This document shows, piece after piece, positions 1,659 to 4,069 of a DNA stretch of 7,020 nucleotides (position 1 is the first letter of the stretch; every line of letters begins with the position of its first letter). The notes below the pieces were generated by a model. The model saw only the letters and a program-made list of their open reading frames with translations, made no database searches and was not told where the DNA came from. A program made the translations under genes and the position numbers. This DNA comes from an uncultured Candidatus Saccharibacteria bacterium (GTDB taxonomy: Bacteria > Patescibacteria > Saccharimonadia > Saccharimonadales > CAMLKC01), in the NCBI GenBank assembly GCA_946480595.1, contig CAMLKC010000050.1, forward strand, positions 1 to 7,020. The letters run 5' to 3'.

Positions 1659-3136
<1,478 letters not shown>

Positions 3137-3376: not shown

Positions 3377-3610
3377 TTACGGGTGAGGGAAGAGTGAATT
3401 AAAGAACCAGGTAAGGAGCATCGTATGGAGGTTTACCATGACAATCAACCCAACGCCGCAGGTAATGAGTGCCCACAGTTTGTAGCGATCGTAGCTTGAT
3501 ACGCCACTGCCAAAATTATCAGCAACCTGCTGGTGCCATTTCACGAATGCGACGCCCGCTGCCAGGATAAGCAACCCTATAAAAAATGATCCTAAGTTGA
3601 ATTCATACAT
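3377..3610 (-). CDS. Small two-helix membrane protein of unknown function
   Basis: A 77-residue protein that I do not recognise as a named family. It has two hydrophobic stretches that look like membrane helices, about 6-24 (LGSFFIGLLILAAGVAFV) and about 45-70, joined by a polar segment (KWHQQVADNFGSGVSSYDRYK, roughly 24-44). It ends NSLFPHP. The amphipathic linker, the promoter directly before it and the terminator it faces make a real gene likely despite the small size. It lies between 16S and 23S and runs against both. No Shine-Dalgarno sequence precedes the ATG. TATAAT (minus strand, 3622 to 3617) is placed so that transcription should begin at or next to the A of the ATG, so the message is probably leaderless. 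Confidence 0.75.
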   Translation of the reverse strand: MYEFNLGSFFIGLLILAAGVAFVKWHQQVADNFGSGVSSYDRYKLWALITCGVGLIVMVNLHTMLLTWFFNSLFPHP

Positions 3611-3723: not shown

Positions 3724-3800
3724 GGGGGCATAGCTCAGTTGGCTAGAGCACCTGCTTTGCAAGCAGGGGGTCCAGGGTTCGAGTCCCTGTGCCTCCACCA
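3724..3800 (+). tRNA. tRNA-Ala (anticodon UGC)
   Basis: Full cloverleaf with an encoded CCA. The acceptor stem is GGGGGCA (3724-3730) with TGCCTCC (3790-3796), discriminator A3797, CCA at 3798-3800. The D arm contains TAGCTCAGTTGGCTAGAGCA, the anticodon stem is CCTGC/GCAGG with loop TTTGCAA (anticodon TGC, 3758-3760), and the T arm is CAGGG-TTCGAGT-CCCTG. The third acceptor pair is G:U, the known identity signal for alanyl-tRNA synthetase. It is the first gene of a three-tRNA operon; Ala and Ile tRNAs are the usual residents of bacterial 16S-23S spacers. Confidence 0.98.
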
Positions 3801-3803
3801 TAT

Positions 3804-3839
3804 GGGGTGAACCAGGCGAAAGTCTGGGACACTCCACCA
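3804..3839 (+). ncRNA. Minihelix with ACCA end, tRNA-Ala acceptor-like
   Basis: Three bases after tRNA-Ala lies a 36-nt element that folds into one hairpin. GGGGTG (3804-3809) pairs with CACTCC (3830-3835); an AA/GA internal loop follows; CCAGGC (3812-3817) pairs with GTCTGG (3822-3827, one G:U); and the loop is GAAA, a GNRA tetraloop. It ends in ACCA (3836-3839), like a tRNA. The first three pairs are G-C, G-C, G:U and the unpaired base before CCA is A, matching the 1:72, 2:71, 3:70 and 73 positions of the tRNA-Ala next to it. It may be a remnant of a partial tRNA-Ala duplication (both contain CCAGG and end CTCCACCA) or a functional RNA. The fold is seen in sequence; function is inference. 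Confidence 0.5.
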
Positions 3840-3877: not shown

Positions 3878-3954
3878 GGGCGCTTAGCTCAGTTGGCTAG
3901 AGCATCTCGTTTACACCGAGAGGGTCGGGGGTTCGAGCCCCTCAGCGCCCACCA
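3878..3954 (+). tRNA. tRNA-Val (anticodon UAC)
   Basis: Cloverleaf with an encoded CCA. The acceptor is GGGCGCT (3878-3884) with AGCGCCC (3944-3950), discriminator A3951, CCA 3952-3954. The anticodon stem is TCTCG/CGAGA with loop TTTACAC, anticodon TAC at 3912-3914. The T arm contains GGTTCGAGCCC. A valine tRNA between the usual spacer Ala and Ile tRNAs is less common in bacterial rRNA spacers. The CCA is followed at once by the 3' arm of a short flanking helix. Confidence 0.98.
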
Positions 3955-3992: not shown

Positions 3993-4069
3993 GGGCGATT
4001 AGCTCAGCTGGTTAGAGCGCGTCACTGATAATGACGAGGTCGGAGGTTCAAGTCCCTCATCGCCCACCA
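3993..4069 (+). tRNA. tRNA-Ile (anticodon GAU)
   Basis: Cloverleaf with an encoded CCA. The acceptor is GGGCGAT (3993-3999) with ATCGCCC (4059-4065), discriminator A4066, CCA 4067-4069. The anticodon stem is CGTCA/TGACG with loop CTGATAA, anticodon GAT at 4027-4029. It is the last gene of the tRNA operon. The tRNA sits as the loop of an 18-bp helix whose 3' arm begins at the base after CCA. Confidence 0.98.

What the first reader, a model, noticed from the sequence alone, without database searches (positions are those of the whole stretch)
3804..3839. A natural alanine-type minihelix encoded next to tRNA-Ala
The element is a 16-nt by 16-nt hairpin with a GNRA loop and a 3' ACCA, three bases after tRNA-Ala. 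It repeats the acceptor features alanyl-tRNA synthetase reads: G1-C72, G2-C71, G3:U70 and A73. It is established that this enzyme can charge artificial minihelices carrying G3:U70, so a genomic one could be a substrate, a decoy or a CCA-tagged small RNA. A decayed partial tRNA copy is the plain alternative, but an intact GNRA loop and a fully paired stem would be lucky in a decayed copy.
Basis: partly seen in the sequence, partly recalled or inferred. Interest (0 to 1): 0.78.

Follow-up and report, generated by a model that had tools for sequence, protein, structure and literature searches.

The report
Natural alanine minihelix RNA gene
Saccharibacteria carry a conserved tiny RNA gene shaped like only the amino-acid-accepting end of an alanine tRNA; if cells load it with alanine, it would be a natural example of a molecule so far used as an artificial one.

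Summary
The 36-nt hairpin at 3804-3839 is real and conserved. Of 80 GyrA-anchored loci, 30 show the stretch after a downstream tRNA-Ala: 24 keep the hairpin, 1 a relic, 5 lack it. A covariance model finds one copy each in 54 of 294 genomes of the class; all 13 hits among 379 phylum genomes are class members. Stem pairs 5-14 change with compensation (114 double-change cells, 0 of 500 shuffles) while G1-C72, G2-C71, G3:U70 and A73-CCA stay in 47 of 47, G4-C69 in 46 (partly by construction of the search). Pairs 5-7 mostly differ from the same genome's tRNA-Ala, so it is no recent copy. Five copies stand as genes of their own, with a -10 box 11 nt upstream and a terminator downstream. AlaRS lacks the elbow-binding C-Ala domain in 9 of 9 intact genes, also in genomes without the hairpin. 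Best reading: an alanine-accepting minihelix RNA trimmed by RNase P. Processing and charging are inferred; its use, perhaps as alanine donor for FemAB enzymes, is a guess without co-distribution support.

The parts
3804..3839 (+). alanine-type minihelix RNA, 36 nt
   Evidence: fold -21.6 kcal/mol, z -4.67; covariance model R1 58.3 bits, the window being one of the sequences R1 was built from
3801..3803 (+). leader bases YAU just before G1: T at -1 in 47 of 54, A at -2 in 49 of 54, pyrimidine at -3 in 54 of 54 distinct elements; read as RNase P cleavage context (inference)
3804..3809 (+). 5' arm of acceptor-like helix, G1-G4 then U5 G6
3830..3835 (+). 3' arm of acceptor-like helix (CACUCC); U at 3833 pairs with G at 3806 as G3:U70
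   Evidence: G3:U70 in 47 of 47
3810..3811 (+). 5' side (AA) of 2x2 internal loop
3828..3829 (+). 3' side (GA) of 2x2 internal loop
3812..3827 (+). upper 6-bp helix with GAAA tetraloop (3818-3821); contains a second G:U (3816:3823)
   Evidence: loops in relatives GAAA, GCAA, UUCG, UUAC, UUAU and others
3836..3839 (+). 3' A73-CCA tail; no conservation after it
3724..3800 (+). tRNA-Ala(UGC), neighbour, with the same GGGG/CUCCACCA ends
3878..3954 (+). tRNA-Val(UAC), neighbour
3993..4069 (+). tRNA-Ile(GAU), neighbour

Best explanation
A Saccharibacteria small RNA gene whose product is a 34-38 nt alanine-type minihelix. Shown by sequence: a conserved, covarying hairpin with fixed alanine identity pairs and an encoded ACCA end, one copy per genome found, sometimes with its own -10 box and terminator. 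Inferred: RNase P cuts just before G1, 3' exonucleases trim to the encoded CCA, and the C-Ala-less AlaRS, which should read mainly the acceptor stem, loads it with alanine. Inferred and least sure: the alanyl-minihelix has no anticodon and so serves off the ribosome, most likely as a dedicated alanine donor for the FemAB-family peptidoglycan transferases common in these genomes. My split: real selected RNA 0.97; alanine-accepting 0.75; Fem donor 0.25.
For: Kept in 24 of 30 informative loci chosen without regard to the hairpin. Covariation: 114 double-change cells against 36 shuffled, 0 of 500. The fixed set G2-C71, G3:U70, G4-C69, A73 equals the acceptor part of the bacterial alanine identity set in PMC9976931 (passages). 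Internal control: the upper wobble G13:U20 is G-C in 9 of 44 sequences, G3:U70 in 0 of 47. Pairs 5, 6 and 7 agree with the same genome's tRNA-Ala in only 1, 4 and 5 of 25 while pairs 1-4 agree in 25 of 25 (the hairpin side of pairs 1-4 was set by the search pattern). Neighbouring tRNA-Ile and tRNA-Val have G3-C70 in 39 of 39 counted. Copies with a -10 box 11 nt before G1 and a terminator in L115, L116, L119, L122, L125. AlaRS without C-Ala, 9 of 9 intact; a viral mini-AlaRS without C-Ala charges a bare acceptor helix as well as tRNA and needs G3:U70 (PMC10036535 passages). FemAB in 59 of 61 genomes; FemX of Weissella needs G2-C71 (PMC4052509 passages), which the RNA keeps.
Against: No RNA or charging data. 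FemAB does not track the hairpin: 34 of 35 genomes with it and 25 of 26 without; G075 has the hairpin but no FemAB match. Short AlaRS also occurs in genomes without the hairpin, G011 and G249, and frames are as short in other Patescibacteria, so it is permissive, not specific. In E. coli an AlaRS fragment without C-Ala binds tRNA-Ala and the acceptor helix poorly (PMC10036535 passages), so loss of C-Ala alone does not prove acceptor-only binding. The RNA is dispensable: absent from 5 of 30 loci, a relic in L052. Constancy of GGGG/CUCCACCA is partly by construction: the seed set was found with that pattern and the models weight it.
Confidence: 0.62

Rival explanations
1. AlaRS decoy or regulator: an uncharged or charged minihelix that titrates AlaRS or senses alanine, without passing alanine on.
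For: Same sequence evidence as the best explanation. [quoted passage not shown] title only seen).
Against: No regulated target stands out in the 20 neighbourhoods listed; many copies sit among tRNAs behind 16S rRNA, which suits an abundant house-keeping RNA better than a switch (inference).
Confidence: 0.15
2. RNase P/processing signal: a tRNA-end mimic in the rRNA or tRNA spacer that marks a cut; alanine features are a relic of its origin.
For: YAU leader before G1 and the encoded ACCA suit RNase P; common place between tRNAs.
Against: Copies with their own -10 box and terminator and no tRNA close by have nothing to process. RNase P does not need G3:U70 (recalled), yet 3:70 is never G-C while the other wobble often is.
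Confidence: 0.12
3. Decayed partial tRNA-Ala copy or pseudogene.
For: The T-arm plus acceptor of tRNA-Ala is similar in outline, so an ancient origin there is possible. L052 is a decayed copy of the hairpin, and the spacer of L073 holds a tRNA-Ala-like fragment that does not fold so.
Against: Compensatory changes over the stem and fixed identity pairs; pairs 5-7 mostly unlike the tRNA-Ala next door.
Confidence: 0.02
4. Transcription terminator, attenuator or DNA-level hairpin.
For: Stable hairpin in a spacer.
Against: No T-run follows the stem in the window, ACCA does; in several loci a separate terminator follows.
Confidence: 0.02

Closest known systems
Artificial alanine minihelices and microhelices charged by AlaRS (Francklyn and Schimmel 1989; title seen)
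   Same: acceptor helix with G3:U70, A73, CCA and no D or anticodon arm
   Different: those were made for experiments; this is encoded and conserved in genomes, with a 14-pair-long stem (12 paired plus a 2x2 loop in the window) capped by a tetraloop, not a T loop
tmRNA (tRNA-like domain charged with alanine)
   Same: alanine-type acceptor end outside normal tRNA
   Different: no T loop, no reading frame, about ten times shorter; tmRNA is present as well, over cut-off in 60 of 61 genomes
Special tRNAs feeding Fem transferases (tRNA-Gly of Staphylococcus aureus; passages of PMC4052509)
   Same: proposed role: amino-acid donor kept away from the ribosome
   Different: those are full tRNAs; here only the acceptor helix, and the role is unproved
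Armless mitochondrial tRNAs (recalled, no call)
   Same: reduced tRNA
   Different: those keep an anticodon arm and work in translation; this has none
Plant-virus tRNA-like structures (recalled, no call)
   Same: chargeable ends on RNA that is not tRNA
   Different: part of long viral RNA; this is a small bacterial element

Membership tests
Alanine minihelix (AlaRS substrate) | hairpin with G3:U70 and A73-CCA | tested here: met
   window; 47 of 47 in A4; relic L052 is the exception
Alanine minihelix (AlaRS substrate) | G2-C71 and G4-C69, the other acceptor pairs listed for bacterial alanine identity (PMC9976931) | tested here: met
   G2-C71 47 of 47; G4-C69 46 of 47, one G:U
Alanine minihelix (AlaRS substrate) | is charged with alanine by the cognate AlaRS | not testable with these tools
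   needs in vitro aminoacylation or an acid-gel Northern blot
Alanine minihelix (AlaRS substrate) | cognate AlaRS keeps the G:U-reading Asn and Asp | tested here: inconclusive
   Asn of P[AS]N and Asp of DT[YF]GFP invariant in 9 of 9; that these equal E. coli N303 and D400 is recalled mapping, not aligned here; the AlaRS of the window's own genome was not available
tRNA | cloverleaf with anticodon arm | tested here: not met
   ARAGORN and the Rfam tRNA model give no gene at 3804-3839
tmRNA | tRNA-like domain plus tag reading frame | tested here: not met
   no RF00023 match in the window at the gathering score; tmRNA found elsewhere in relatives
Independent small RNA gene | own promoter and terminator | tested here: met
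   consensus-like signs in L115, L116, L119, L122, L125; not in the window, where it lies among tRNAs between 16S and 23S; L121 has a weaker box and no terminator by my rule; transcription untested
RNase P substrate | acceptor-like stem with ACCA and suitable -1 base | tested here: inconclusive
   sequence fits, U at -1 in 47 of 54; cleavage untested
Alanine donor for FemAB transferases | co-occurs with FemAB | tested here: inconclusive
   34 of 35 with hairpin, 25 of 26 without
Alanine donor for MprF-type lipid transferases | LPG_synthase_C domain in the genome | tested here: not met
   1 of 61 over cut-off, and that match overlaps a FemAB match in G216
Intrinsic terminator | T-run after the stem | tested here: not met
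   ACCA follows the stem in the window; T-run terminators are separate where seen

The most novel reading that the evidence does not exclude
A natural aminoacyl-minihelix: a genome-encoded RNA consisting of a tRNA acceptor end alone, charged with alanine in living cells and used as a dedicated amino-acid carrier outside translation (probably for cell-wall bridges), i.e. a working modern example of the minihelix stage proposed for early tRNA evolution.
Probability: 0.4. Interest if true: 0.97.

Novelty: categorically new. Interest (0 to 1): 0.88.

Why it matters
Minihelices have been used since 1989 to argue that the acceptor end of tRNA is older than the rest and can be charged on its own, but as artificial molecules. 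A conserved bacterial gene for one would show that cells use an acceptor end alone, would give the Patescibacteria a new translation-side pathway, and would make the off-ribosome use of alanine directly testable in Saccharibacteria. The ten full-text searches made here listed no title or abstract start that reports a natural encoded alanine minihelix; they cover open-licence papers only, and I saw capped listings and passages of three papers, not every hit.

Tried and rejected
Rejected: pseudo-tRNA copy (covariation; pairs 5-7 differ from tRNA-Ala). Replacement for a missing tmRNA (tmRNA over cut-off in 60 of 61). Donor for MprF-type lipid transferases (1 of 61 over cut-off). FemAB co-distribution as proof (no contrast). 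C-Ala loss as a hairpin-specific trait: of 20 genomes first met in the phylum draw, 17 have open AlaRS frames of 593-653 aa, one 691, two are cut by contig ends (frame lengths only, domains not scanned).

Led nowhere: R1 hits of 79 nt are whole tRNA-Ala genes, not hairpins; A3 held such rows and opposite-strand artefacts and was not used. In genomes whose tRNA-Ala locus lacks the hairpin, the weak matches were tRNA-Ala genes or, in G008, an unrelated stretch. Two of 11 AlaRS genes were broken or split (G003, G009) and were left out of the domain test.

Limits of the searches: stricter filters were used and only 17-22 first-look candidates per genome were scored, so misses there are weak evidence of absence. 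The six genomes checked singly (G008-G013) also had more candidates than the 150 scored.

Full report
What is there. The window holds the 3' part of gyrA and a second gene after it, 16S rRNA (1659-3134), a small open frame on the other strand (3377-3610), tRNA-Ala, tRNA-Val, tRNA-Ile and the start of 23S rRNA. Between tRNA-Ala (ends 3800) and tRNA-Val lies a hairpin at 3804-3839: six pairs, a 2x2 internal loop (AA/GA), six pairs, a GAAA loop and a 3' ACCA. Its energy is -21.6 kcal/mol, z -4.67, and none of 200 shuffles fold as well. Rfam has no family for it at gathering thresholds.

Is it conserved? I searched public genomes with the GyrA fragment of the window, which knows nothing of the hairpin; 270 stretches encoded a relative and the best 80 were kept. 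Most record titles say Saccharibacteria; a few say Nomurabacteria, Patescibacteria or only bacterium. Of these 80, 31 hold a tRNA-Ala. In L002 the contig ends 7 bases later, so 30 are informative. Twenty-four have the hairpin before the next tRNA or contig end, 3 to 199 bases after tRNA-Ala; L052 has a decayed copy; L003, L013, L067, L072 and L073 have none. No good match was found elsewhere in the genomes of these six, though not all first-look candidates were scored. On a GyrA tree of 31 rows the 25 with the hairpin fall on both sides of the midpoint root, and five changes of presence are needed; shuffled labels need 5.6 on average, so absence is scattered, not one clade. That suits an old gene with several losses, but the count cannot tell gain from loss.

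Covariation. A MAFFT alignment of 23 of the 25 elements (L039 and L079 have the same letters as L038 and L043 and were left out) shows 88.5% of cells paired and 45 cells changed on both sides, against 15 in shuffles, 0 of 500; two weaker measures, number of pairs with such a change (50 of 500) and further pair types (282 of 500), do not stand out. A wider set of 47 matches of the covariance model shows 91.5% paired and 114 double-change cells against 36, 0 of 500; that alignment is fitted to the structure, which favours it. Pair 5 occurs as U-A, C-G and U:G, and as A-U in L170 and L171. Loops are GAAA, GCAA, UUCG, UUAC, UUAU and others. In one group the upper stem is wholly different yet the ends stay the same (L124, L126, L131).

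What does not change. G1-C72, G2-C71 and G3:U70 are 47 of 47, and G4-C69 is 46 with one G:U. The first set was collected with a pattern that asks for GGGG and CTCCACCA, so this is partly built in; in the spacers, folded without that pattern, I saw only one ACCA-tailed hairpin of another kind, the relic L052. Within the same molecule the upper G:U pair is G-C in 9 of 44 but G3:U70 is never G-C. On the GyrA tree pair 3 has 0 changes, pair 5 two, pair 6 five, pair 7 ten, the upper wobble two. PMC9976931 (passages) lists A73, G2-C71, G3:U70 and G4-C69, with G20, as bacterial alanine identity. Hairpin and same-genome tRNA-Ala agree at pairs 1-4 in 25 of 25, which the search pattern forced on the hairpin side, but at pairs 5, 6 and 7 in only 1, 4 and 5 of 25. 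The likeness stops where the synthetase's known interest stops. Neighbouring tRNA-Ile and tRNA-Val genes that end in CCA have G-C at 3:70 in 39 of 39.

Edges. Among 54 distinct elements the leader reads YAU: T at -1 in 47, A at -2 in 49, pyrimidine at -3 in 54. After ACCA nothing is conserved. That is how a tRNA-like unit cut by RNase P and trimmed to its CCA would look; processing itself is inferred.

How wide? With model R2, 54 of 294 genomes of the class of G001 have a match at E 0.005 or better, one each. G001 is the genome of L017, a named Saccharibacterium; the class name Saccharimonadia is recalled. Completeness was not shown, many are drafts, and only 22 candidates per genome were scored, so 54 is not a prevalence. 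In 379 genomes of the phylum 13 match at E 0.01, all of them genomes already found in the class. How many of the 379 lie outside the class is not told, and a diverged form could be missed.

It can be a gene of its own. Copies also lie beside tRNA-Ile, upstream of tRNA-Ala, or with no tRNA close by. In L115, L116, L119, L122 and L125 a -10-like box (TATACT, TATAAT, TATACT, TATAAT, TATTAT) ends exactly 11 bases before G1, and an intrinsic terminator follows. The script found both signs in L115, L119 and L125, with a second, worse-placed box in L115 and L125. L116 and L122 have the same hairpin letters as L115, were dropped as duplicates there, and were read by eye. A sixth locus without a detected tRNA, L121, has TATCAT 10 bases upstream and no terminator by my rule. 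L115, L116 and L122 share their hairpin, so the five are not five independent cases. L120 and L131 run tRNA, hairpin, terminator by the script, and L118 by eye. This speaks against a mere spacer or processing element. Transcription is not shown.

The synthetase. AlaRS was found in 11 of 11 genomes tried; nine are intact, 624-636 aa, with the catalytic (PF01411) and editing-core (PF07973) domains and no further domain; two are broken or split and were left out. So the C-Ala domain, which grips the tRNA elbow, is missing. PMC10036535 (passages) reports that a viral AlaRS without editing and C-Ala domains charges a bare acceptor helix as well as whole tRNA-Ala and still needs G3:U70, and that a catalytic piece of the Aquifex enzyme charges a minihelix; but also that E. 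coli AlaRS prefers the tRNA about 68-fold and that its piece without C-Ala binds both RNAs poorly. Two of the nine short enzymes are from genomes without the hairpin (G011, G249), and AlaRS frames in other Patescibacteria are as short. The window's own AlaRS was not available.

What could it do? Without an anticodon it cannot decode. It does not replace tmRNA (60 of 61 over cut-off). FemAB transferases, which move amino acids from charged tRNA onto cell-wall precursors, are found in 59 of 61 genomes (many rows are pieces, so counts are not gene counts). FemX of Weissella needs G2-C71, and MprF1 accepts an alanine minihelix (PMC4052509 passages), but the MprF domain is over cut-off in 1 of 61, there on top of a FemAB match. 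So a Fem-type donor role is my first guess, with no co-distribution to back it: 34 of 35 with the hairpin, 25 of 26 without; G075 has the hairpin and no FemAB match. A decoy for AlaRS or an alanine sensor is the main rival.

Verdict. A real, conserved, covarying RNA element with alanine-acceptor features, in some genomes apparently a stand-alone gene, not described in any listing I saw. That it is charged is likely but unproved; its use is open.

Noticed in passing
window 3377-3610 (-): A small open frame for a likely membrane protein lies before tRNA-Ala; by eye, similar frames lie beside the tRNA/minihelix in L114, L115, L118, L125-L128, L130 and L132, of which only L127 showed rRNA within the 4 kb scanned (L114 was not in that scan).
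   Followed up: partly
L045 and L077 (also L017 and L117) between tRNA-Ala and minihelix: The CCA end of tRNA-Ala is the start of a long hairpin ending in TGG in the folds of L045 and L077, which could hide the tRNA 3' end; L017 and L117 have the complementary letters by eye only.
   Followed up: no
L180-L188 and L193-L211: AlaRS lacks the C-Ala domain in the Saccharibacteria tested, and frames are about as short in most other Patescibacteria sampled, so tRNA-Ala recognition may rest on the acceptor stem through much of the phylum.
   Followed up: partly
L115, L116, L119, L122, L123 downstream of the minihelix: A gene for a small protein of 82-86 aa (such as MDKDKIIAAIKEKVDLPDDVIAKAG...) follows the minihelix; alike by eye, unknown link.
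   Followed up: no
61 Saccharibacteria genomes: FemAB-family matches are numerous for genomes of 0.7-1.5 Mb, up to 13 matched pieces in one genome.
   Followed up: no
G003 (locus L189): AlaRS lies in two open pieces in this assembly; sequencing error or real split not decided.
   Followed up: no
elements of A4, upper stem: A second G:U pair (G13:U20) sits one pair below the tetraloop-closing pair, kept in 35 of 44 and G-C in 9; its role is unexplained.
   Followed up: partly
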